From Gaeumannomyces sp. JS-464 (Eukaryota; Ascomycota; Sordariomycetes; Magnaporthales; Magnaporthaceae), in NCBI GenBank assembly GCA_002197995.1, contig NGZR01000001.1:13969501-14033500 (forward strand): 64,000 bases of DNA. The letters are read 5' to 3'. The stretch's first letter is position 1. Every line of letters starts with the position of its first letter. The position numbers and the translations under genes are program-made. The notes under the pieces were generated by a model, which saw nothing but the letters and a program-made list of their open reading frames with translations, was not told where the DNA came from and ran no database searches. Below are positions 15,426 through 60,288 of this stretch, piece by piece.

Positions 15426-16538
15426 TTTTCTCGTGTTGTTTTTGTTTGCACCGCCCCGAACTCGGATTTTTGTCCGGCTCGACTCGCATCAGTTCCCGCC
15501 CACCACCCATAGTCAAATTTTTAGTGCGATAGCTGGCCCGTGCGAGAGGCTTAGCCAATCAACAGGCGCAGTCTTCATCGCTGAGTGCCTGCATTCTGCC
15601 CCTGAACCCCTGAAAGGCATGCTCTTGACATCTCTGGGTTGGCTCAGAGGCTACAGCATGTCGGTGCTGGCCGGGAAAGACTGAGCAGTAAGCGCCGGAC
15701 CAGAAGTAACCAGGTAGGTGAGGGCAACAAGCCGAGAAGGAATAAGATGGGATCAAGGATGAAAGGATTGGTTTCGGAGCTGGGATTTGGGTTGAACAAA
15801 TGTGAGATGGCCGCCTGCACCGCCTGCGGAGCCACGCTCTTGGCGGTGAGATTTGTCCATCAACGCCCTCGCACCCTCGATTGCGAGCTGTGCTAGTGCA
15901 TGCACCGCACCACGGGGCACAGGATGTGCGACAAGGCGGGAAATCCGCCGCGGCGTGTGCAATGGATGCCTTTGGGCTGATGCCTTGGGCTGTAGTAATT
16001 TCGCACGCGGCTGTCTGCAAACATCGGCTCTATCGGGCCTGGATTCACTGACCGCGCGGTTGAGGGAGCATGTTGTCCGCCAGGCAGTGGCGTCGGTCCG
16101 GAGCTGCCTGGTGTGGCGGCGTCAGTCCGAGGCCTAGTACAGCCTTCAACCACCTAGGATTTCGGATGGCGACAAGCAGCACACGCCAGGCTTACTGTAG
16201 GCTCTGCGAGCTCCATGTATATCAATCAGGCAGACCGATTGTCAACTCCAGGTCGGATTTGTTGCTATCACCATCACCTACAACATCATCTCCAACACCG
16301 TCTCCAACAGCTCCAACACCACCGTTGATAGCCTCCCCACCAGCCACATCGCCATCGACACCACGTTCGACAACACCACCGTCTGCGACATTACCTACCC
16401 AGCAGCTTCAAAGAACACTATCCGGGCAGTCTTTTTTGATTAACCCCAGAGTTCTTACGCCATCACCGACGCCTTCCCGCCAAGCTAACGCACAGCCTAC
16501 CACACTGACACCACAAGTCCATACACCATACTAACACA
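15426..16538. other. Divergent promoter region and A/C-rich leader
   Basis: Separates the Rkm4-type gene (-) from the peptide-precursor gene (+). From about 16260 to 16500 the plus strand is strongly depleted in G and rich in CCAACA/CACCAT-like words, as expected for an unstructured 5' leader of a strongly translated secreted gene. The Pro/Ser/Thr-rich frame this creates ends at 16534, four bases before the precursor ATG, and is probably not a protein. Confidence 0.5.
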
Positions 16539-17949
16539 ATGAAGTGCCAGACTTTCGGCGCCTTCTTCCTCGCCTTCGCCCTGCCTACTCTGGCGGCGAA
16601 CCTGGAGCAGCCCGCGGCTGAAATCGCCGAAGCCCCCGACGCCGCCGTGCAGGAGCAGAAGGACGACCTGGAGCGCCGCTTCGCCCCCGCGATCCCCATC
16701 ATCACGACCCTTCTCGGCGGGCTCTTCGCCGGCAAGGGGAAGGGCAAGCGCGACCTCGACACCGCCGAGCCCGACACCGCCGATTACGACCTCGAGCGCC
16801 GCTTCGCCCCCGCGATCCCCATCCTCACCACCCTCCTCGGTGGGCTCTTCGCCGGCAAGGGGAAGGGCAAGCGCGACCTCGACGGCTCCAACGATGCCGA
16901 GGCCGTCCTCGCGGAGCTGGCCGACGCCATCGAGCGCGAGTCCCACCTGGACCGCCGTCGCTTCAACCCCATCGTCCCCGGCATCCCCCCGCAGTTCACG
17001 AGGGACTGGATCAACAGGAACAGGAACGGGAACGGCCGCCGCTCCCTGGACGAGGCCGACACCGACGCCATGTACGCCGAGCTGGCCGACATGATCGCCG
17101 CCGACGACGCCGGGTCCGACGCCGCCCTGGAGCGCCGCCAACCCCGCTTCTTTAGCCCCACTGGCTCCTTTGTTCCTTCTCTCGGCCAGTTCCGCCTCCC
17201 GAACCAGCAAAAGAGCAAGAACAGCCGCCGCTCGCTCGACGCCGACGCCGACGCCCACCTAGACCGCCGCTTCCTGCCCATCTTCACTGTCCTCAAGAAC
17301 TTTTTAGGCAAGGGCAAGCGCGATCTCGAGAGCGGCGCCGACGCCGACGCTCACCTGGACCGCCGTTTCCTGCCGATTTTTACAGTCCTCAAGAACTTCC
17401 TGGGCAAGGGCAAGCGTGACCTCGAGAGCGTCGCCGGCGCCGACGCCCACCTGGACCGCCGCTTCCTGCCCATCTTCACCGTCCTCAAGAACTTCCTCGG
17501 CAAGGGCAAGCGCGACCTCGAGAGCGGCGCCGACGCCGACGCCGACGCCGCCCTCGCCGAGCTGGCCGCCGCCATTTCTGCCGCCGGCGATGGTGAGGGC
17601 GAGGGCGGCGCCGCCCTGCAGCGCCGCATCGCGCCCGCCATCCCATCCTCACCACCCTCCTCGGCGGGCTCTTCGCCGGCAAGCAGAGCGGCAAGCGCGA
17701 CCTCGAGGGCATCACCGACCAGGCCGACGTCGAGGCCGCGCTCGCCGAGCTGACCGGCATGATCGAGGCCGACCCCTCGGCCCTGGGCCGCCGCGGCGAC
17801 GGCGAGCCTCGTCGCACCTGTCCAGCGCCGACCTCGCCGACGTCATGGCGCCGGTCTTGGAGCAGGCCGCAGCCGCGGCCGCGGACGAGGCCGAGAAGCG
17901 CGACGAGACGATTGCCCGCATGCGGGTTGCCCGGGGCGTTGTGGTCTAG
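16539..17949 (+). CDS. Secreted multi-copy peptide precursor with dibasic (Kex2-type) sites
   Basis: No intron; about 470 residues if two missing bases are allowed (near 17645 and 17806). Residues 1-19 form a signal peptide ending TLAA. The rest is cut by KR or RR into alternating acidic spacers (e.g. DLESGADADAHLDRR) and basic, hydrophobic cores. Type A, FAPAIPI(I/L)TTLLGGLFAG plus a KGKGKR tail, occurs at residues 48-71 and 89-112, with a variant copy straddling the first frame break. Type D, FLPIFTVLKNFLGKGKR, occurs three times at residues 245-261, 277-293 and 309-325, its first codons at 17271, 17367 and 17463 (96-bp period). Two longer unique segments lie at residues 141-168 and 201-231. 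Such layout marks Kex2-processed repeat proteins, the class that includes pheromone and RiPP precursors. The cores have no Tyr and no UstY-like gene lies nearby, so a linear secreted, perhaps antimicrobial or signalling, peptide is favoured. Function unproven. Confidence 0.85.
17234..17521 (+). repeat. Three tandem 96-bp coding repeats of the type D peptide unit
   Basis: Each unit encodes 15 spacer residues plus the 17-residue FLPIFTVLKNFLGKGKR core. The three cores are identical in protein but differ at several third positions (Pro CCC/CCG, Ile ATC/ATT, Phe TTC/TTT, Thr ACT/ACA/ACC, Leu TTA/CTG/CTC). Confidence 0.9.
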
Positions 17950-18824: not shown

Positions 18825-20108
18825 CTATTTCAGGCGCTGAATCCAGCCGTGCAGCAGAGCCTGGATTTGGTTGCTGTTGCGCTCCATGAAGAACATGTGC
18901 CCGTTGCCGTGGATCCCCTTGTCGGCGAGCTCAACGTGCTCCGTCTTGCTGCAGCCGGCCTGCTTCAGGAAGTCGGCGGTGCAGTAGTCGTACGGCATGT
19001 GGTACGACGCCTCGCCCGTCATGATGAGGATGCTCTTGTCAGCCAGGTTGGCCAGGCGGCGCGGCGCGGGGCTTTCGGCCTGCAGGACGCACTGGACCGT
19101 CGCGTTGGCGACGCCGCGGTTGTCGCGCGCGGGGAACACCTTTTGCACTAGATCGGTGGCCGGGTCGGTCACGGGCGGGTCGTAGGCGAGCGGGGCGTCG
19201 GTCAGGCCGTAAGGGCGCGCGGGCTTCTCGCTGAAGACGGCCTCGCGGAAGGGCGGGCCGGTGGGCTCGAGCAGGACCAGGCCGGCGGCAAGGGCCGGGC
19301 GGGCGTCGGCGATCAGGAGCGGCAGGATGCCGCCCTGGCTGTGGCCGACGAGCACGGACGGGCGGCCGATGCGGTCGAGCAGGGCGGCGCCGGCGGCGGC
19401 CATGGTGGACTGCTGCAGGGTGGCGTTGTTGACGAACTGCACGTTGGACGAGTAGAAGGCGTCAAAGACGGGGTCGCCCATGACGCCCGGGCCGGGCCAC
19501 TGCGTGTGGTTGACCGACTGCGGCCAGAGCTTGTACTTCTGCGGCGCCGTGAAGCGCTGCTGCAGCAGCTCGGCCGAGTAGGTCGACGGCGCCGCCGCGC
19601 CGTGCTTGGGTTGCCACGCCGACCGGGCCCGGAGCGTCTGGTCGACGATGTAGACCTCGTAGCCCTGCCGGATGAACTGCGACGCCCAGCCGCGGCCGCC
19701 GTCGGGCTTGTTGAGGAAGTTCTGGCAGCGAAAAAAAAAAAAAAAAGGTTAGTCTCACGATGCCCCGGAGCGGATGTAACGTCACGTGGAGACCTGCGTC
19801 TGCAGAAATCTAGATGCCGGGGCAAGGCGAAATAACGGGAGCGGGGGAGGGAAATGAGCTTACGGTGCCAGTCTGGGCCTGGCCGTGGATGAGGACAACC
19901 GGCGTAGTCCGGGTCACCCCGCCCGCCGGCAGAAGCTTCTCGACGTACATCTGGTCGCGGAAGATCTTGCCGCCGCTCCCATCGTCGACGTACTGCCCTC
20001 CGGCGTAGAAGAAGGTGCGGATGTACGGCACTTCGCCCGTGCAGTTCCTGGCCGAGGCCGACCCGCGAGGGACAGGGCCGCGGTGGTGGCGACGGCGAGG
20101 AAACGCAT
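18825..20108 (-). CDS. Secreted alpha/beta hydrolase, esterase-713-like
   Basis: Exons 20108-19864 and 19721-18825, about 380 residues. The start [15 protein letters not shown] is a signal peptide. Just after it one base is missing in a C-run near 20063, since the conserved [17 protein letters not shown] segment is in the next frame. The oxyanion segment reads [15 protein letters not shown], the nucleophile elbow is VLVGHSQGG (Ser nucleophile), and late [11 protein letters not shown] and [11 protein letters not shown] segments fit the acid and His positions. [37 protein letters not shown] is the pattern of bacterial and fungal esterase-713-like enzymes, whose natural substrates are poorly known. 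The intron ends in a run of 15 or more T just before its 3' site. Confidence 0.82.
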
Positions 20109-21312: not shown

Positions 21313-22624
21313 ATGGGCGACCCTACGCTCCTGATCCACTGGCTCTTCAGCTGCCTGGCCCTGCTCATCATCTTCACGCGCCTGCTGTGGCGCAAGGTGG
21401 CCGGCCAGAAGTACAGCACAGGCGACTTCCTGAGCATGGCCGCCGCTGTCTGCGTGCTCGCGCGCATGGCCATCATCCACGTCGTGCTCATCTGGGGCAC
21501 CGCCAACGTCTCCAAGGCATACCGCCAGAACCACGTGTTCGACGCCGGCGAGATCCGCCGCCGCGAGATCGGGAGTCAGCTCGCCCTGGTGAACAGGGTC
21601 TTTTACAACTCTTAGTGAGTGCCGGGCGGGGCCTTCCCCCTCCCCGTGCCAGGGGGAGTGAGACTGATTTGGAGGCTTGGCTAATGCGCAGCACGTTTGC
21701 GATGGGAACCACAGTCTATGGCTGCAGAAGCTCGTCCTCCTCGACGTCTACCGCCGCCTGATTAAAAACCTATGGTACGAGCGCATGTGCATTTACACGT
21801 ATCTGGCCGTCTTCTTCGCCACCTACGTCGCCATCCAAATCACCACCTTTAGCGAGTGCAACCCCGTCCAGCTGTACTGGCAGGTCGTGCCGGACCCGGG
21901 CGAGTGCGCGCGCGCGCAGGTGCAGCTCTTCGTCGTCGGCGTCACCAACGTCGTCACCGACGCCATGCTGCTGGTCCTGCCGCTGCCCATCGTCTTCTCC
22001 ATGCAGTCGGCCTCGTGGCGCCGCCGCGCCCAGCTGCTGGTGCTCTTTGGCCTGGGTATCTTCATCATCCTCATCACCCTCATCCGCCTACCCATCAACT
22101 CCAAGAACGCCGACAGCCAGATCAGCCGCACCACCTGGGCCAGCACCGAGCTGCTGGCCGCCGCCTTCGTCGTCAACGCCCCGACCATCTGGGGTCTGTG
22201 GAACAAGCGGCGCCAGGCAACCGCCTACGCCAAGTCGCTGGGCAAGGCCAGCGGCGGCGGCGGCGGGGCCAGCGCCAACACCACCGGGTCCGGCTCGGCC
22301 CGGAGCAGGCCCGACCGCTCCCTGAACCGGGGCTCCGTGGGGCGGTTCTACGGCCGCGACGCCACCGAGCTGGCCGACCTGGGGGGCACCACCGAGAGCA
22401 GCGAGCTCGTGCTGGGCGTCGGCAACATCTCGACCGTCGCGCGCGGGCCCGACAGGGACGACGACGAGGAGCGCGAGCTCGAGTCCTTCACCACGAGCCC
22501 GGGGCTCCGGCGGCAGCCGTCGGCCAAGGACGGCATCACCCGGACCATGGAGGTCATTGTGACCACCGAGATGGACCAGAGCCTGTCGACCAAGGCCAGC
22601 CAGCAAGATATTATGAAGCGTTGA
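21313..22624 (+). CDS. Fungal rhodopsin-domain integral membrane protein
   Basis: Exons 21313-21614 and 21715-22624, 403 residues, no frame break. The acceptor at 21714 was chosen because it restores NSY-LWLQKLVLLDVYRRL in phase. Seven hydrophobic helices are visible. The diagnostic stretch reads SECNPVQLYWQVVPDPGEC (two Cys, conserved disulphide loop), followed by VTNVVTDAMLLVLPLPIVF and FGLGIFIILITLIRLP, then the last helix WASTELLAAAFVVNAPTIWG. This matches the fungal rhodopsin domain (PF20684) shared by Pth11-like and Sat-type membrane proteins. There is no N-terminal CFEM domain. The cytosolic tail of ~130 residues is Gly/Ser/Arg/Glu-rich. Ligand and role unknown. A paralogue lies at 35104-36962. 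Confidence 0.85.
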
Positions 22625-35103: not shown

Positions 35104-36962
35104 CTAAAACATGTCCCTGACGTTCTTCTCCGACGCCTCCTCCACCGAGACCGTGATGTCTGTCGTCCTCGTGATCTGGGGCGTCGACCCCAAGTGAGGG
35201 CGCTCCCCATCCCATTGCATCATCACCTGCTCGTCGCTCGACCGCTCCACCCCCGCCGTAACCGTCGACGACGAACCAGGCGACGCCGGCGATGTGCCGC
35301 CGTGGAACCCGGCCCCGACCGCGCCGCCGCCACCACTACCACCGAAATGGCTAGGGTCACCGGGGGCCGCTTCCTTGTGCAACCCGAAGTCGAAGCCGGG
35401 CCTGTCGCCGCCCCTGCCCAGCGCCGCGGTCTGGGGCATGAACGGAGTTGCGGTCGTTGAGGGTCGCCTTCTTGTACAACTCGAAGGCGAAGTCGGGCCC
35501 GTCGTCGTCCCTGCACAGCGTTGTGGTCTGGGGCATGACGGAGCGGCGTCCCGTGCCGCCGGGGCCCGGGCGCGACGACCCGGAGCGCCCGTACGCGCGG
35601 CGTCCGCCGTCGGCTTGCCGCTGCTGCCGTACCTGCTCGTGCTGGCCAGGATGCGCGAGAAGAGCGGCTTTAGGCACGGGATCGACCCCGCGATGATGGC
35701 GACCGCGATCTCGGCAGTGTACCTGAGACGAAGGGGAGAGAGAGAGAGAAATGTCAGTAGTATGTTCCCCGTGGGAGAGCAGTCAGTCCACCCGGGTTCC
35801 GGACGAAAGGATGCTGCCCGAGAGAGCAAGGGGAGAGGTCCCGTCCATACCAGAGCGTGATGTCGGCGGTGTCCCACATGTAATCCCGCGCCTTCCCCAA
35901 TTCGTTAATGCGATCGTCTTCTTAATGGCCGCGGCTACGGTGCTAAGACGAAAAAAAAAGGAGAAAGGTCAGCAACTGCAGGTGGCGGGTGACGTGAGGA
36001 TATAAAGGTAGGAACCGGGCGGCGGCGGCGGGGCTGTGTACTCACAAAAACCCAAAGGACAGGATGGCGAGGATGGCAGCCTTGACGCGCCAGTTCATCT
36101 GGACGTTCCACAGCATCGGGATCGGCAGCACCGCGAGGCAGAAGTCGGAGACGACGGTGAAGGCCGAGTTGGTCATGGCGCTCGCGACGAGGACGCTGGG
36201 CTGTATGCAGGTGCCGCCTCCGGGCAGGTTCTTGTTCCAGATATACTCCATGGGGAAGCACTGGAGGATTGTTTGGACTTGGGGGAGCGCCAGTTTGCAG
36301 GCCTTGTCAGCATCTGGTTTGTCATGCCGTGGGAGAGCGGACGTCGGGTAGGCTCACGAGAAAACACGATGACTAAAACTATATTCAGGCCAATAAGGAA
36401 CCACAGGAACCATTTATAGCCTCTGGAAGGGGCGAACCGGAGGAGGAAGTGGCAGACGCTAAGCCGGGCCAGCGTCAGCGCGACCAAGCAGGTCGGCTGG
36501 GTGATGAAGTTGAGGCGGGTGGCTTCCATAAAGTCCTGCGGCAAGATGTATTCGATGTGGCGGCCGGCTCCCAGCCTAGCCTCCTCGATGATCACTCCGG
36601 TCATCGCCGTAAGGACGAGCTGTGGTTCGGGTGGGCACCCAAAATGACAATGAGTCAATTTGAGCAGGAAGGAAAGCGAACGGGGGGCTGTAGAGAGGCA
36701 AGAGAGAGAGAGGAACAGAGAGCACATAACCGTCGCAAGTATCATCAGATAGTCGTCCATGGCGAGGGGCGTGGACGAACTTGCAGCGCACCATGACGCG
36801 CAGGGCGACGACGGCCAAGGCGAGAGCGGTCAAGGTGACACATGTCGCCGTTAGCTCGGTCCCACGGTTGTCGTTTGGCCGCTCGCCCGGCACGTAGATT
36901 TTGAAGGGAGGAGGGGCCGCAGTCGCACTCGGAAGCGCCGCGGTCGAGCTGCTGCTGGCCAT
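35104..36962 (-). CDS. Second fungal rhodopsin-domain membrane protein
   Basis: Five exons: 36962-36731, 36619-36368, 36302-36046, 35942-35851 and 35722-35104. The N-terminus is short and extracellular, then helices follow around TATCVTLTALALAVVALRVMV, MDDYLMILAT, TCLVALTLARLSVCHFLLRF, YKWFLWFLIGLNIVLVI, a Cys-containing loop (ILQCFPMEYIWNK and GGGTCIQP), SAFTVVSDFCLAVLPIPMLW, AAILAILSFGFF and EIAVAIIAGSIPCLKPLF. This is the fungal rhodopsin-domain layout, as in the protein at 21313-22624. The ~150-residue tail is low-complexity, ends in an acidic SVEEASEKNVRDMF segment, and contains two similar MPQT(T/A)-type units. Frame breaks: one extra base in the G-run at 36766, one change in the C-run near 35895, and two in the tail (35410-35600). 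Role unknown. Confidence 0.75.
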
Positions 36963-50038: not shown

Positions 50039-50665
50039 GGTCGGTTCGATTTTAATGTGGTTGGAGGTGGCTGTCGTCGCGCGACCGCGATCGCGATGGC
50101 GTTGTGGAGGCCAAGGCTTGGGTTTCTTTTTTTTTCCGCTGCAGATTTCCGCAGGTATCGGGATTATTCAAAACAAAACAAACCAATCACCACAAAATCG
50201 CAATGCGACGTCGCGGGACGCAGTCGGTTGCGACGCGCGGAAATAATAATGGAATGCGGGCAGGCGAGTAACGACCGACTGGAGCTCGGGATCAAGCAGC
50301 GAGCAGCCCTGGCTCGATTGTGGGAGGATTGTCGAGAATTGAGGTGTCAATTGTCATGGCATCCTGGGGCTTCTGCCAGAGCCCCTTGTTGTCGTCGCTT
50401 CCAGTCGACGTGAATCTCATTGAATGCGTTGACGCGTCCGTGCCCCAGCGCTCCATCAACGGTCGCCACAAGGCTTGGCCCCTGTCGCTCTGGGGACGCT
50501 GGTCTGCCAATTAACGCGTCTCGAGCAACGACGATCCCCAGCTTCACGCGTCACATTTGCAACCTCCAAAAAGCCGACAGCAGAACCGCCAGACGATTCT
50601 CCTCTCGTCTTCTTACTGTGGCACCAACCCCCAGACTCAATTGGATACCCTGTACTGTCGCCAAA
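50039..50665. promoter_or_regulatory. Bidirectional promoter between MIF2 and RNase H2A
   Basis: 627 bp between two divergent starts. No individual promoter element can be assigned with confidence. Confidence 0.5.
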
Positions 50666-51822
50666 ATGGAAGACACGCAAATGGCCGACGACAACCCGAA
50701 CCTGGCGCTCGAGACACCTGCCGAGGACGTCTTCATGCCGCCCTCCATCAACGAGCCGGCCATCGTAGCGGGCGACTCCTACACCCACTTCTCGCCCGTG
50801 CCCGAGGCACTACTTCCCCCCAAGACATCGACAGCAACAAAAGAAACCACAGACGGCGGCGACAGCAAAGAGGCGCAACAGCAACAACAACAACAACAGC
50901 AACAACAACAACAACAACCCGGCGTCCCCTGCTTCCTCGGCGTCGACGAGGCCGGCCGCGGCCCCGTCCTGGGCCCCATGGTCTACGGCGTCTTCTACCT
51001 CCCGTCGCCGCTGTCGGACCCGCTGCTGCGCGAGACGCACCACTTCGACGACTCCAAGGTCCTCAAGCCCGAGGTCCGCTCCGCCCTGATGGAGGCGCTC
51101 TGCTCGCCCGGCAGCGACCTGCACGCCTCGTGCGGCTGGGCCGTCTCAGCCCTGTCGGCCCGCGACATCGGCGCCAACATGATGCGGCCCGCCGCGGCGG
51201 CGCCCTACAACCTCAACGCCCAGGCCTTTGACGCCACCGTCGCCCTGATCCGCGGCGTCATGGACCGCGGCGTCAACGTCGCCGACATCTACGTCGACAC
51301 GGTCGGGCCCCCGCCACCTACCAGAAGCGCCTCGAGCGCGTCTTCCCCACCGCCCGCATCACCGTCGCCAAGAAGGCCGACAGCCTGTACCCCTGCGTCA
51401 GCGCCGCCAGCGTGTGCGCAAAGGTGACGCGCGACGCCGCCCTCGAGGTCCTGTACAAGGCCATCATGCTAGAGGCAGCGTCAAACGACGAGGGGACGGG
51501 AGGAGAGGACGGTGGCGACGGCGAGCAGTCCAGCTGGGGCTCGGGCTATCCGTCGGACGGCAGGTGCGTGGCCTGGCTGAGGCGGAACATGCACCCCGTC
51601 TTTGGCTGGGGCCCCGAGTGCCGCTTCAGCTGGGGCACCGCCAAGGAGATGCTGGAGCCGACGGGGACCGCAAAGGTGGCCAGCGTCAAGGTCGACTGGC
51701 CGCTCGACGACGACGGCGAGAACAGCCGCATGACCGACTTCCTCGTCGCGAGCGGCAGGGACAAGGACGCCGACGAGCTGGGCACCTGGTTCGGGACCCC
51801 GGCTGACGTGGAGGCCTTTTGA
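50666..51822 (+). CDS. RNH201: Ribonuclease H2 catalytic subunit A
   Basis: A single exon of ~385 residues once one missing base near 51312 is allowed. The catalytic start FLGVDEAGRGPVLGPMVYGV holds the DEAGRG signature with the first two acidic residues. HHFDDSKVLKPEVR follows, then IYVDTVGPP (third Asp region), RITVAKKADSLYPCVSAASV and CAKVTRD (catalytic Asp after the VCAKV block). The ~90-residue N-terminal extension has a Gln run from a CAA/CAG repeat. Substrate-contact sequence GSGYPSD lies at ~51536. The enzyme removes ribonucleotides from DNA and cuts RNA-DNA hybrids in the nucleus, together with the B and C subunits that are not in this window. The start at 50666 was preferred over an in-frame codon at 50420 because of its AAAATGG context and because the upstream part is not conserved-looking. 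Confidence 0.92.
50875..50918 (+). repeat. CAA/CAG repeat coding a Gln run
   Basis: About fourteen CAA/CAG codons in the RNase H2A N-terminal extension. Confidence 0.9.
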
Positions 51823-53355: not shown

Positions 53356-56124
53356 CTAAATCTCATCGTCATCGTCGGCCCTTGGCGTCCTCTTCCTTCC
53401 TCTGCTGTCCAGTGAGTCCATCCTGACCGAGTCGCTGTCCATAGCCAGCGCCTGCCTGGCCGTCTCGTTGTTCGCGAGGAACTCCCTAAGCTTCTGCTTG
53501 AAGATCTCGCCTCCCTGGTTGACTGCCGCAGAGCTCATCTGCATCATGGGGCCCAGGAGATTGAGGTTGTAAGCGACGTAAAAGCCGCCAGACAAGATCA
53601 GGATGAGAATGAACAAGACAGGATTGCGTAGAACTAAGAGTGGTTGTCAACTTGTTAGTGTGCGGTTTTTGCTTTCAGTTTGGTGACAGTCAAGAGAAAC
53701 TTACCCATCCAGATCTCGTTCCATCCCAAGACCAGGAGCAGGATGTAAAAGTATAGCGGCACCTGCGTCATACCGCCGAGAGCACCACGCTTGGCTTCGA
53801 CGTAGACGCCGTCCGCCGTCTTCTTGAACCGCACCACCAGGTCCTGACGCTTGCCCTCGCTGAGCACCGTCATCTCCTCTTCGAGGCTCTTGCCCTCATC
53901 CTCGTCAATGCCGCCAATGGGCGTTAGGTCCTCCTCATCCTCGGGCTCTGCCCCGGCTGGCTGATGGCCCACCCATCCGGGAAGGTCCGGCAGCGCCGAC
54001 GTGGCCGAGAGCCGGAATTTCGACAGTAGCGGGATTAGCGTTAGTGTCGACTCGCGCGCGCGTGTGTAGATGCCCTCTATGTCGTCTGTCGGCCGCCAGA
54101 TCCTCGGGACTCCGGCCTCGTCGTACCTAAACTTGTCCTCGAAGTTCTCCCGGAGTTTGAGCAGAATGTTGCCCTCCATGACCTCCTCCTCAATCTTCTC
54201 CCGGAGGGCTATCCAGCTCTTGCGCCGCAGCCGCCACAAGCCGATGTGGACCTCGTCATCGCTAGCCTCGAAGCTCTTGGCCCGGTCCGCAAACCGTTCC
54301 TGCGCCTCCGTGACGACGCCGACAAATACGTTCCAGATGCGGTCCCACAGGTCTTTCTCCGTCGGCTTCTCACCGGTTTCAGGGGCACCTGTTCCCCCGC
54401 GCCCTGAGCCGAGCTTGTTGAACTCCAGCCCGATTGAGTCGCCCAGGCGCGACTTGACCCAGCGCTCTACGCGCGTAGCCAGTCGGCGCATCTCGTCCTT
54501 CCGCAGCCGAGCGCTGACCTCATCCAGCTCCTTCTCAAAGAGCACGTACTGGCTCCTGAAGTTCGTCCAGGGGACGCCCTCGATCAGTAAGCTCTTGGCT
54601 TCCTTCTTGAAGAGCTCGAGAGTCTTCCGCTTCTGCTTATCGACAATCTCGGCAAACTCGTATGAGCCTCCGGACTTCTGTCCAGCCTTGACGGCGTTGG
54701 TAACGGCGTCACTGAAGGCGGCTACTCCGGCCTTGTGGGCCGCCGACACCTGCCCCATGTACAATGCCTTAAGGCGCGTGTCAATCTTGGCCTCAAGCTC
54801 AGCCCCTTTCCTGGCGGCGACACCCTTGTGGTAGCGACACGCCAGCTCCTTGAAGCCCTTAACCGCCTTGGTGCGAGCGGCGCTACCAGTCTTACCAAGG
54901 TCTGGCAGGACCGGACGGCTTGCCTAGACGGACGGCCTCGGCCTGCTCATCCTCGAGCGGTAGGATGGCCTCGTCGAAGGCAATAAGGACCTCCCTCGCG
55001 ATCTCGTCGCAGCGGAACTGGGCGAGCAGCTCCTGCTGCGTGGGCAGGTCCAGGTCCTTGTTGTGCACAATCTGGTCCCAGATTCCCTCGGCGTAAACAG
55101 AAAAGCCGTCGGCCGGGATCCTCGGTGGTACTCGGGCAGAAACACGCCACCCGCGAACTCCTGATCCGGGGTCGACCGATGCCCGGCAACGAACCTCGAT
55201 CCCAGTCTTTGCACTTCCGAAATGAACTTCTCGGGCTGGAGGATCTTGTGGGGGAGGGCGGCGAAGGCAAAGTCGAAGTAGTCCTCGATCTTGGCATGCT
55301 CGAGAGCCTGCGGCTTGGAGATGGTGGACCAGATCTTGGTCAGGTCCTGGATCAGGGTGTCGCGCAGATTGGCAAGCGGGGTATTCCCGATGTGGTCGCG
55401 GATGACGAAGAAGAGCAGCGAGCGCGGGGCCGAGGCCTTGTCCTTGAGGAACAGCTGCAGGTTGACCTCGAACACCGTCTTGAGCAGGCCCATGTTTGCG
55501 CCCTGGTACAGGCCGACCTGGTGCTCCCAGATGTTGACAATGAGGACCTCGCTGGTGGCGAGGGCGAAGAGGGCGCTCTTGCGCTCAAAGTCCTGGTCCT
55601 CACCGCGCTCGCGGCCGTCGGTGCCCTCGACGTCCATAACGAGGATGTTATCGGCCATCTTGACGTCGCCGGTGCCCTCGCGCCTGTTCTTGGACATCCA
55701 GATGCCCTTGGTGGTCTGCCGGCGCTCCGACTCGGACATGACGCTGAACTCGGTGCCGAACAGGTTGTTGAGCAGCGTCGACTTGCCCGTCGACTGGGAG
55801 CCGAAGACGGAGATGAGGTGGTAGTTGAACCCGGCATCGGCCACGTGCGTGTGCTGGAGGTAGTCGTTGACCTTGACGCTGCAGAGCAGGAGGGCAGCGC
55901 GCGGCGCAAACGGTTAGCAAGCTGTCACTGACCGCCGACGGCGACGACCCCTTGTTTTGCTTTCTCTGGTGCCGCCGTCGGAGCACACCCCGCGGGCGAT
56001 CTCTTGCGTGTCTCCACCGCGACGCAACTCACTTAAAGAGCTTGTCCTCGTCTATGACCTGGATGCCATGCTCGAAATCCTGGGCCGTCGGCTCGCTACC
56101 GACGGCGGCGAACTTGCCGTTCAT
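53356..56124 (-). CDS. SEY1: Sey1, atlastin-type dynamin-like GTPase of ER membrane fusion
   Basis: Exons 56124-56033, 55878-53705 and 53633-53356 give ~847 residues. The GTPase core has P-loop [19 protein letters not shown], switch region [14 protein letters not shown]3 motif [19 protein letters not shown] and a later VIRDH segment in the G4 position. A long helical-bundle middle domain follows, with PEYHR and [12 protein letters not shown] segments split across frames. The C-terminus has two adjacent membrane helices ([19 protein letters not shown] and [17 protein letters not shown]), an amphipathic helix and an acidic end. Sey1 shapes tubular ER by homotypic fusion. Two frame changes, near 55122 (a base missing) and 54917 (a base extra), cancel, so the overall phase is right, which argues that the gene is intact. 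The start at 56124 gives [16 protein letters not shown] and splices at a GTGAGT donor. Confidence 0.92.
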
Positions 56125-58690: not shown

Positions 58691-60288
58691 TTAGATACCC
58701 AGAGTGAACTCGACACCGACGTCGATTTCCCGAGCTGTTAAGCAAGGACGAATAAAGTTAGCCGTTTGGTTCCTGTATTAGAGGGGAGATTTCTAGATTC
58801 GACTCACCCATCTTGACAACCTTAGACAGCTGGACCGACTTCTCGGCAGCGCTCTGCAGGTCGTCAATGGAGAAGATCTTCATGCCGGAGTCGTTGATGA
58901 TCTGGTGGGCCTGTTCCATGTTGGTACCCTGCAGACGAGCGATGATGGGGATCTTGAGGTTGAGCGACTTGACAGTCTGGATCAGACCGTTGGCGATGTG
59001 ATCGCAGCGGACGATACCGCCGAAGATGTTGACAAAGATAGCCGTGACCTTAGGGTCGCTGGTAATGAGCTCAAAGGCCTCCTTGATGGCGGCAGGCGTG
59101 GCACCGCCACCGACGTCGAGGAAGTTGGCCGGGCACCACCGTTCAGCTTGATGATATCCATGGTGGCCATGGCCAGACCAGCACCGTTGACCAGGCAGCC
59201 AATGTCGCCGTCTAGCTTGATGAAGTTCAGACCCGACTCGGCGGCGCGCACCTCATTCAGGGTCCTCCTGGGTGGTGTCGCGCAGCTCAAAGATCTCCTT
59301 CTGGCGGAAGTCGGCGTTGTCGTCGAAGCCGAACTTGGCGTCCATGCACATGACCTTGTGGTCCGACGTCTCAGACAGCGGGTTGATCTCGATCTGGGTC
59401 ATGTCCTTCTCGATGAAGATCTTGTACAGCTTCTGGATGGTGTCCTTGGCCTCTTCAATGCACTGCTCGCTGAAGCCCAGGTTCTGGGCGATGCCGCGCG
59501 CAACATCGTCGGTGACGCCCTTGTTGATGTCGATGTAGGTGGTGGTGATGGCGTCGGGGTTCTCCTTGGCGACACCCTCGATGTCCATACCGCCCTGCGA
59601 CGACGACACGATAACGGGGCCCTGCGAGGCACGGTCCATCAGGACGGCCAGGTAGAACTCGCGGCGGGCAAACTTGCGCTCGCAGATGTAGACGGCATTG
59701 CACAGGCGGCCGCCGGCGCCCGTCTGCTTGGTGATGAGCTTGTGGCCGATCATCTGGTCGGCGAACATCTTGGCCTCGGTGGGCGAGTAGATGACGCGCA
59801 CACCACCCTTCAGCCCGTTGTCGAAGGTGCCCTTGCCACGGCCGCCGGCCAGGACCTGAGCCTTGATGACCATATCATCGCTGCTGATCTCCTTGGCCAC
59901 CTGTTCGGCCTCGGCCGCCGTAGTCGCAACCTTGCCGGCGGGCACAGAGATGCCGTACTGCATGCCAGAAGAGCGTCATTGTCAGTTGCCGACTCGGTGC
60001 GGAGAGGAAGCTCGAATAGCTCTGAGGTCATGGGGTTGCCAGGGTTCAGTGCGTCGTACCTTGCGGAGAAGGTCGGCCGAGAGGTACTCGTGGATGCTCA
60101 GAGCTCTCCGTTGTTGCTGGGCGAGGCCGGGGAGTCTGGAGGAAAGAGCAGGCTAAGCGGGAGGGGTCGCCAGGTCAGCAGTGTGTCCTGGAGCTGGAGC
60201 AGGGTACTTCTGGAAGAAGGAGCTCGCAAGAGGAACAAACCTTGGGCACAGCCGAAGCCAGAACTCTACTGCGAGCGAGCTTGAACAT
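58691..60288 (-). CDS. LSC2: Succinyl-CoA ligase beta subunit, mitochondrial
   Basis: Exons 60288-60241, 60152-60060, 59957-58808 and 58734-58691 give 444 residues, the usual length. A basic N-terminal mitochondrial leader ([16 protein letters not shown]) precedes [23 protein letters not shown]-grasp blocks follow: [46 protein letters not shown], then [15 protein letters not shown], a FLDVGGGAT segment and [18 protein letters not shown]. The enzyme joins succinate and CoA with nucleotide phosphorylation in the TCA cycle, with the alpha subunit not present here. An extra base near 59266 and a missing base near 59133 cancel, so overall phase holds. The second exon acceptor (TTAG at 60153) was chosen by phase over a closer CAG at 60136. 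Confidence 0.93.

What the first reader, a model, noticed from the sequence alone, without database searches (positions are those of the whole stretch)
16539..17949. Secreted precursor releasing several cationic, helix-like peptides, no recognised family
Seen directly: signal peptide, acidic spacers, dibasic sites on both sides of every core, three identical 17-residue FLPIFTVLKNFLGKGKR copies and two to three copies of a second core beginning FAPAIPI. Known: Kex2 cuts after KR/RR and Kex1 trims C-terminal basic residues; multi-copy precursors of this kind give pheromones, hydrophobic surface peptides and RiPPs. Inference: the 15-residue trimmed core is short, cationic and amphipathic with an N-terminal Phe-Leu-Pro and an internal Gly near the C-end. 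That is the general look of temporin-type antimicrobial peptides of frogs, by convergence. It could be a fungal antimicrobial or signalling peptide not yet described.
Basis: partly seen in the sequence, partly recalled or inferred. Interest (0 to 1): 0.9.

Follow-up and report, generated by a model that had tools for sequence, protein, structure and literature searches.

The report
Fungal multi-peptide precursor with swappable cores
A fungal gene encodes a protein, predicted to be secreted, in which seven positively charged segments alternate with acidic spacers at predicted protease sites; the segments would be released as short peptides that likely act on cell membranes, and a sister gene in the same genome keeps similar ends around unlike segments, much as frog skin defence-peptide genes do.

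Summary
The ORF at 16539-17753 has a signal-like N-terminus and seven cationic cores alternating perfectly with acidic spacers at KR/RR (14 of 14 sign changes; 0 of 20,000 shuffles). The three FLPIFTVLKNFLGKGKR copies differ at 4-8 bases per pair, all synonymous. Three searches of 5.8 billion proteins found one relative, Gaeumannomyces tritici GGTG_10682; 14 of 15 dibasic sites are kept. This is a Kex2-processed repeat protein (KEP), a known class.

Two corrections. The eighth core and C-terminus lie in other frames; two conserved genes in the window break similarly, so assembly indels are likely. 'Temporin-like helix' is weak: 59 of 63 temporins pass a helical-moment shuffle test, but none of ten FLP/FAP/IAP cores passes clearly (best 5.0%). 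FLP cores instead share a hydrophobic N-half.

New: a second precursor on another contig shares the signal peptide and tail but has unlike cores; a third shares the signal peptide. That is a conserved frame with replaced cores. Activity is inferred: likely linear, membrane-acting secreted peptides. No UstYa match lies near.

The parts
16539..17753 (+). ORF of 404 aa, the precursor; in the gene's own frame to about 17642
   Evidence: orthologue P0002
16539..16598 (+). Signal-peptide-like segment MKCQTFGAFFLAFALPTLAA
   Evidence: sequence; 20 of 20 residues identical in P0002; shared with paralogues. No signal-peptide predictor was run
16599..16679 (+). Acidic leader ending LERR
16680..16751 (+). 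Core 1 FAPAIPIITTLLGGLFAGKGKGKR
16752..16802 (+). Acidic spacer
16803..16874 (+). Core 2 FAPAIPILTTLLGGLFAGKGKGKR
16875..16961 (+). Acidic spacer ending DRRR
16962..17042 (+). Core 3 FNPIVPGIPPQFTRDWINRNRNGNGRR (stands where P0002 has an FLP core)
17043..17138 (+). Acidic spacer
17139..17231 (+). Core 4 QPRFFSPTGSFVPSLGQFRLPNQQKSKNSRR
17232..17270 (+). Acidic spacer
17271..17321 (+). Core 5 FLPIFTVLKNFLGKGKR, copy 1
17322..17366 (+). Acidic spacer
17367..17417 (+). Core 6 FLPIFTVLKNFLGKGKR, copy 2
17418..17462 (+). Acidic spacer
17463..17513 (+). Core 7 FLPIFTVLKNFLGKGKR, copy 3
17514..17627 (+). Acidic spacer ending LQRR
17628..17698 (+). Core 8, IAPAIP-type; the reading frame changes inside it
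17636..17806 (+). Piece in a second frame, 70% identical to P0002 residues 374-427
17797..17949 (+). C-terminal tail in the third frame (17797-17946 is 74% identical to P0002 434-480) plus stop codon; related to the tail of the paralogue on contig 31

Best explanation
This gene encodes a repeat protein, predicted to be secreted, in which seven cationic cores alternate with acidic spacers at dibasic sites; Kex2 and Kex1 would cut and trim it into short linear peptides that likely disturb the membranes of competing microbes. Shown by sequence: the architecture, its conservation in Gaeumannomyces tritici, synonymous-only change among the FLP copies, and a paralogous precursor with a related signal peptide and tail but unlike cores. 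Inferred: secretion; cleavage after KR/RR; Kex1 removal of C-terminal K/R, giving FLPIFTVLKNFLGKG and FAPAIPI[IL]TTLLGGLFAGKGKG; acidic spacers that keep the cationic cores soluble and quiet inside the secretory pathway; and membrane action through a hydrophobic N-terminal stretch with a basic C-terminal end. The cores appear to be the part under changing demand, while the secretory frame stays fixed. Confidence is about 0.9 for the Kex2-processed-repeat architecture, 0.7 for a family with a conserved frame and replaced cores, and 0.45 for the whole chain including membrane-directed antagonism.
For: Alternation of charge 14 of 14, 0 of 20,000 shuffles; KR/RR enrichment. FLP copies: 8, 4 and 6 base differences by pair, 0 non-synonymous (chance of all-synonymous 5e-6 to 2.6e-3 under uniform change, 5e-5 to 5.8e-3 with transitions favoured). 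Orthologue: signal 20/20, dibasic sites 14/15, other K/R 4/20, spacers 104/170, cores 65/143 (core figure lowered by unit order). P0002 shows the same alternation through its eight cores. Kex2-type P_proprotein match in the genome. Paralogue K2 on contig 31: first 48 coding bases 88% identical, against 27-43% in the three 30-base windows before the ATG and 33% at +60 to +90; leader match E 0.0028; signal peptides beat 20,000 shuffles in 6 of 6 pairs; K1 and K2 tails beat 5,000 shuffles; no BLASTP match between the K2 core and four K1 core types. FLP cores have a more hydrophobic N-half than 96-99% of shuffles, and core 3 more than 99%. Precedent for a KR-cut polyprotein giving a membrane-damaging peptide whose neighbours prevent aggregation: Ece1/candidalysin (passages of PMC12153327).
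Against: No activity, expression or mass-spectrometry evidence. Helical amphipathicity, a common property of membrane-active peptides, is not a conserved property of the FLP or FAP/IAP cores. For FAP/IAP cores the N-to-C hydrophobicity difference is weak (9-14% of shuffles reach it) and the FFR core of G. tritici shows none (24%). Cores 3 and 4 are not hydrophobic overall (mean -0.12, -0.16). In this assembly the frame is lost before the end of the gene. K2 cores are bounded by a dibasic site on one side only (NQR-D on the other), and K2 fragments with cores, cut at KR/RR, have interior charges of -4 to 0, so the charge alternation of K1 is not shared by K2. For the K1 FAP core, 76 of 2,000 shuffles score as well against the K2 core, so a trace of likeness is not excluded. 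The AlphaFold model is uninformative (mean pLDDT 33.7).
Confidence: 0.45

Rival explanations
1. The cores are surface-active wall or aerial-hypha peptides, like the Ustilago maydis repellents from Rep1 (name recalled), that assemble on the hypha rather than attack other cells.
For: FLP and FAP cores join a hydrophobic stretch to a basic end; KEP precedent in U. maydis (passage; reference titles). Six of six FAP/IAP cores show a weak strand-like moment at 170 degrees (5.5-14% of shuffles reach it).
Against: FLP cores are only 14-15 residues after trimming; core sequence and order differ between the two species compared, odd for a structural coat.
Confidence: 0.2
2. The peptides act on the plant host (a candidalysin-like or effector role) rather than on microbes.
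For: The only named relative is Gaeumannomyces tritici, the wheat take-all fungus (listing); Ece1 parallels; linear KEP peptides are known as plant effectors (passage of PMC7329392).
Against: Species and lifestyle of the window's own genome are unknown; no expression data seen.
Confidence: 0.2
3. A dikaritin-type RiPP precursor whose cores are cyclised by UstYa enzymes.
For: Same precursor plan; UstYa genes exist in the genome (10 exon-level matches).
Against: None of the 10 lies in the window; the nearest on this contig is about 10.3 Mb away. No Tyr in any of the seven cores.
Confidence: 0.04
4. A secreted signal (pheromone-like or self-sensing peptide) with a dedicated receptor.
For: Three identical copies of one core, as in pheromone precursors; fungi use KEPs for this (abstract).
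Against: The cores differ between species and several core types lie in one precursor; spacers begin DL or SL and lack the XA/XP (Ste13) repeats described for pheromone KEPs (passage). FAP cores do begin X-A (then Pro) and the QPR core begins X-P.
Confidence: 0.1
5. The gene is dead or dying in this species.
For: The frame changes twice after about 17642.
Against: Pieces after the breaks are as similar to the orthologue (70%, 74%) as the part before (65%); an RHD3_GTPase (Sey1-type) and an RNase HII gene in the window also jump frame with no room for an intron, which points to assembly indels; seven complete cores precede the break; FLP copies show synonymous change only.
Confidence: 0.12

Closest known systems
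GGTG_10682, Gaeumannomyces tritici R3-111a-1 (hypothetical protein, P0002)
   Same: Orthologue: same signal peptide, dibasic sites, spacers, FLP and FAP/IAP core types, tail
   Different: Eight intact cores in another order (4 IAP, 3 non-identical FLP, 1 FFR); core 3 is FLP-type there and FNP-type here; one open frame
Kex2-processed repeat proteins (KEPs; Le Marquer 2019, Umemura 2020)
   Same: Signal-like segment, repeated peptides between KR/RR
   Different: Acidic spacers between all cores, several core types in one protein, and paralogues with shared ends but unlike cores; Umemura grouped KEPs by BLASTP E < 1e-30 and > 70% coverage, which would not join such paralogues. Whether other KEPs have such spacers was not surveyed here
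Candida albicans Ece1 / candidalysin
   Same: Kex2/Kex1 polyprotein; hydrophobic peptide shielded by neighbours in the precursor (passages)
   Different: Candidalysin is 31 aa, one of eight peptides, amphipathic and helical; sequence not compared with Ece1 here
Temporins and other preprodermaseptin-type frog peptides
   Same: Conserved signal peptide, acidic propiece, dibasic cut, changeable mature peptide, charge balance (passages of PMC10049141 and PMC7106915); FLP start in many; similar length (63 average 13.4)
   Different: Amidated C-end in those described, clear helical amphipathicity (59 of 63); one mature peptide per precursor (recalled); here polar basic C-end and no clear helix signal
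Ustilago maydis Rep1 repellents (name recalled)
   Same: Polyprotein giving amphipathic peptides (passage)
   Different: Surface role; sequence not compared here

Membership tests
Kex2-processed repeat protein (KEP) | N-terminal secretion signal | tested here: met
   By inspection only: 20-residue hydrophobic start ending LAA, identical in the orthologue; no signal-peptide predictor was available
Kex2-processed repeat protein (KEP) | At least 3 repeats of at least 8 aa between KR/KK/RK/RR, none over 100 aa (Umemura) | tested here: met
   Three identical 17-residue copies between RR and KR; the authors' 40-aa seed scan was not rerun
Kex2-processed repeat protein (KEP) | Repeated motif fills at least 15% of the protein (Le Marquer) | tested here: inconclusive
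   FLP motif 51 of 404 residues = 12.6% here; IAP motif 96 of 480 = 20% in P0002 (counted); depends on how motifs are grouped
Kex2-processed repeat protein (KEP) | A Kex2 protease in the genome | tested here: met
   One P_proprotein match, E 8.7e-27
Kex2-processed repeat protein (KEP) | Cleavage in the cell | not testable with these tools
   Needs mass spectrometry
Dikaritin RiPP (ustiloxin type) | UstYa/DUF3328 gene beside the precursor | tested here: not met
   10 UstYa exon-level matches in the genome (a lower bound), none in the window, nearest on C1 about 10.3 Mb away
Dikaritin RiPP (ustiloxin type) | Tyr-bearing core (general rule recalled; EDYXI core) | tested here: not met
   No Tyr in any of seven cores
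Temporin | Amphipathic helix | tested here: not met
   FLP cores: 5.0, 64, 50, 43% of shuffles reach the moment (the first, the window's, is borderline); positive control 59 of 63 temporins at 5% or less
Temporin | C-terminal amidation | tested here: inconclusive
   No Cu2_monoox_C match, but no control genome rang either
Preprodermaseptin-like gene design | Conserved signal peptide with strongly divergent mature peptide among paralogues | tested here: met
   K1 against K2: signal 14/20, tail above all 5,000 shuffles, cores without BLASTP match. Analogy of design, not common descent
Candidalysin | Cytolytic activity, 31-aa amphipathic helix | not tested
   FLP and FAP cores are 15 and 22 aa after trimming; no assay possible
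Alpha-type pheromone precursor | Repeated Ste13 XA/XP dipeptides after the Kex2 site | tested here: not met
   Spacers start DL or SL; single XA/XP starts only in the FAP and QPR cores

The most novel reading that the evidence does not exclude
Fungi of this group run a frog-skin-like peptide arsenal: a dispersed gene family with a fixed signal peptide and tail, into which unrelated core peptides have been swapped, each amplified in tandem between acidic spacers and cut free by Kex2, as a fast-changing set of secreted membrane-acting weapons.
Probability: 0.3. Interest if true: 0.75.

Novelty: new variant of a known kind. Interest (0 to 1): 0.55.

Why it matters
KEPs are common in fungi and the functions of most are unknown. 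Here the signal peptide and tail, which a survey grouped by whole-length similarity would not use as links, tie together precursors with unlike cores. If the pattern is general, some 'stand-alone' KEPs would fall into families that keep the secretory frame and replace the payload, as expected of peptides in an arms race. It also gives short, synthesisable peptides to test directly, in a group that includes the take-all fungus of wheat.

Tried and rejected
Helical-wheel argument: computed with shuffles and a temporin positive control; rejected as a conserved property of FLP and FAP/IAP cores. Amidation by PAM: a Gly stands before KR in the five intact FLP/FAP cores here, but the G. tritici FLP cores end QAKR or QRKR, and the enzyme search was uninformative. 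Structure prediction: no confident fold, mean pLDDT 33.7, so no fold search was run. PDB sequence search: 0 matches at E up to 10. Pfam hits to SLS1_C and opioid neuropeptide are below cut-off. An extra FLPIF pattern match on contig 29 codes Ser-Arg, not a dibasic site, and is at control level (4 hits against 3 and 4 control hits); discarded. The contig 34 signal-like match (3 mismatches) begins ATA and gave no precursor; discarded. K4 on contig 29 has the signal peptide but no repeated cores that I could read; kept as uncertain. A search with the 46-residue tail found only the window gene, not K2. Distant relatives: three protein searches found only G. tritici; only the 7,995 candidates sharing most words were scored, 5,392 candidates with no such cut named. 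I had no protein search left for relatives of K2 or K3 in G. tritici. No paper in the held library names GGTG_10682. Supplementary lists of the KEP surveys were not open to me and may hold it.

Full report
OBSERVATION. The ORF at 16539-17753 (+) encodes 404 residues. After a 20-residue hydrophobic start it divides at KR/RR into a leader, seven cores and seven spacers (a lone Arg at 16959-16961 and the out-of-frame end were left out of the charge counts). Interior charges run -7, +2, -7, +2, -8, +2, -10, +4, -4, +2, -5, +2, -4, +2, -9: 14 of 14 sign changes, reached by 0 of 20,000 shuffles. KR/RR occurs 16 times (one RRR counted twice); 5,000 shuffles average 4.6, maximum 13.

SELECTION. The three FLP copies are identical in protein and differ at 8, 4 and 6 bases by pair, all synonymous. 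For random change the chance is 5e-6 to 2.6e-3 (uniform) or 5e-5 to 5.8e-3 (transitions favoured). The pairs are not independent. FAP copies: 3 synonymous, 1 non-synonymous. The one spacer pair compared: 3 and 2. So the FLP peptide itself is held constant within this gene.

FRAME. The last part is not in the ORF's frame. The orthologue's residues 374-427 and 434-480 match window 17636-17806 and 17797-17946 in two other frames at 70% and 74% identity, against 65% for residues 1-289. As a control, an RHD3_GTPase domain (profile 1-219 in one frame, 218-245 in the next) and an RNase HII domain (1-111, then 109-197) in this window also change frame where the two DNA matches overlap, leaving no room for an intron (overlap computed from its coordinates). 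Indel errors in the assembly are therefore likely, but a real break is not excluded.

RELATIVES. Three protein searches returned one protein, GGTG_10682 of Gaeumannomyces tritici, 480 aa. Over window residues 1-363: signal 20/20, dibasic residues 29/30 (14 of 15 sites), other Lys/Arg 4/20, spacers 104/170, cores 65/143. The core figure is lowered because the order of units differs after about residue 300. Compared unit by unit with flanks, G. tritici FLP units are 63% and IAP units 74-84% identical to the first window copy. P0002 alternates acidic and cationic fragments through its eight cores; two acidic fragments and a short end follow. The family is thus very narrow in the searched data.

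PARALOGUES. P0002 gave a weak extra match on contig 31 (E 0.13), and the window's 47-residue leader matched the same place (E 0.0028). It is a 435-aa ORF (L011:1986-3290, here K2) with MKYQTFGAFLLAVAMP, LERR sites and five repeats of the type KFGRKTNAVNAITNLVGTVLPWLNQ. K3 (contig 29, broken in frame, cores with TNVLNTAFPWVDLVN) came (E 0.105); K4 (contig 29, uncertain) (E 0.073) (read). A pattern then drawn from these four signal peptides finds those four places in 53 Mb, no fifth, and none for the reversed control. The six pairs of signal peptides all beat 20,000 shuffles. K1 (the window gene) and K2 share 88% of the first 48 coding bases, but only 27, 33 and 43% in the three 30-base windows before the ATG and 33% at +60 to +90; BLASTN joins -3 to +106 at 74.5%. 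One exception upstream: 25 of 29 bases match in register at -270 to -241, a C/A-rich stretch; 0 of 796 shifted comparisons reach that. K1 and K2 tails align above all 5,000 shuffles; K3's tail matches G. tritici's (0 of 5,000), but K1's only weakly (207) and not K2's (1,023). K2 cores resemble K3 cores (0 of 2,000 shuffles) but not clearly the K1 cores (76-1,125 of 2,000). A core pattern finds K2 (3 places) and K3 (3) at 0 mismatches and one stray match at 1 mismatch, control 0. Hence fixed ends and a replaced middle. K2 differs in further ways: its cores end NQR-D, a single Arg, and its KR/RR fragments do not alternate in charge.

PEPTIDE PROPERTIES. Trimmed FLP core: 15 residues, +2. Helical moment: 0.42, reached by 5.0% of shuffles; G. 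tritici FLP cores 0.24-0.29, 43-64%; six FAP/IAP cores 22-65%; cores 3 and 4 32% and 59%; the G. tritici FFR core is the exception, 0.7%. The same test passes 59 of 63 temporins (a hand-picked subset of the passages), so it has power. The best temporin alignment of FLP cores beats 98% of full shuffles but only 79-81% of shuffles that keep the first three residues; one FAP core (26 of 1,000), one IAP core (3) and the K2 core (2) do better there. The K2 sub-stretch NAVNAITNLVGTVLPWLN is strongly amphipathic (0.02% of shuffles), though the stretch was chosen by eye and the whole core is not (20%). FLP cores have a hydrophobic N-half: 787, 412, 242 and 249 of 20,000 shuffles reach the difference; core 3 likewise (128); FAP/IAP cores 9-14%, core 4 6%, the FFR core 24%.

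CONTEXT. None of 10 UstYa exon-level matches lies in the window; the nearest on the same contig is about 10.3 Mb away. A Kex2-type P domain is present elsewhere. Of the 139 stop-to-stop ORFs listed I scanned 18 besides the precursor with Pfam; those with domains include an alpha/beta hydrolase, two fungal rhodopsins, an AA9 enzyme, a Rubis-subs-bind protein, ABC transporter parts, a Sey1-type GTPase, RNase HII and a CoA ligase. None of these suggests a biosynthetic cluster. The predicted structure is without confidence.

MECHANISM. Likely steps: the signal peptide leads the chain into the ER; acidic spacers neutralise neighbouring cationic cores; Kex2 cuts after RR and KR in the Golgi; Kex1 trims basic ends; linear peptides leave the cell and meet membranes by a hydrophobic N-terminal stretch with a basic end. 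Published passages support the analogies: Ece1's other peptides are needed to shield hydrophobic candidalysin from aggregating (PMC12153327), and frog precursors keep charge balance between acidic propiece and mature peptide, with a conserved signal peptide (PMC10049141, PMC7106915). Every functional step here is inferred.

LITERATURE SEEN. PMC7329392: abstract, detection and classification methods, passages. PMC6339444: abstract, pipeline, conserved-peptide and discussion sections, passages. PMC12153327, PMC9769878, PMC10049141, PMC7106915, PMC11905480: passages only. Others: search listings.

VERDICT. A genuine KEP, not a new class, with an orphan core set and an unusual family pattern. The antimicrobial label is a hypothesis; the temporin helix is not upheld.

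Noticed in passing
L011:1986-3290 (+), contig 31 of G000: Paralogous precursor, 435 aa, five KFGRKTNAVNAITNLVGTVLPWLNQ-type cores, related signal peptide and tail.
   Followed up: yes
L021, minus strand from 2294 down to about 1178 (contig 29): Third precursor with the same type of signal peptide; GK-rich and poly-Gln cores with TNVLNTAFPWVDLVN; reading frame changes inside.
   Followed up: partly
L022, minus strand from 2406 (contig 29): Same type of signal peptide before a very acidic, frame-broken stretch; perhaps a fourth, divergent member.
   Followed up: partly
window 16269-16297 (+) and the same distance before the ATG of the paralogue in L011: 29-base C/A-rich stretch, 25 of 29 bases identical in register 241-270 bases upstream of both start codons; perhaps a shared 5' element, or simple sequence.
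   Followed up: partly
window 53655-55913 (-) and 50414-51822 (+): RHD3_GTPase/Sey1-type and RNase HII genes change frame where an intron cannot fit, which suggests indel errors in this assembly; gene models here need care.
   Followed up: partly
window 58758-59975 (-): ATP-grasp and CoA-ligase domains (a succinyl-CoA ligase-like gene) lie in two different frames; may be another frame break or an intron.
   Followed up: no
window 21668-22624 (+) and 36173-36829 (-): Two fungal rhodopsin-domain (PF20684) proteins in one window.
   Followed up: no
window 18825-19748 (-): Alpha/beta hydrolase about 0.9 kb downstream of the precursor, on the opposite strand.
   Followed up: no
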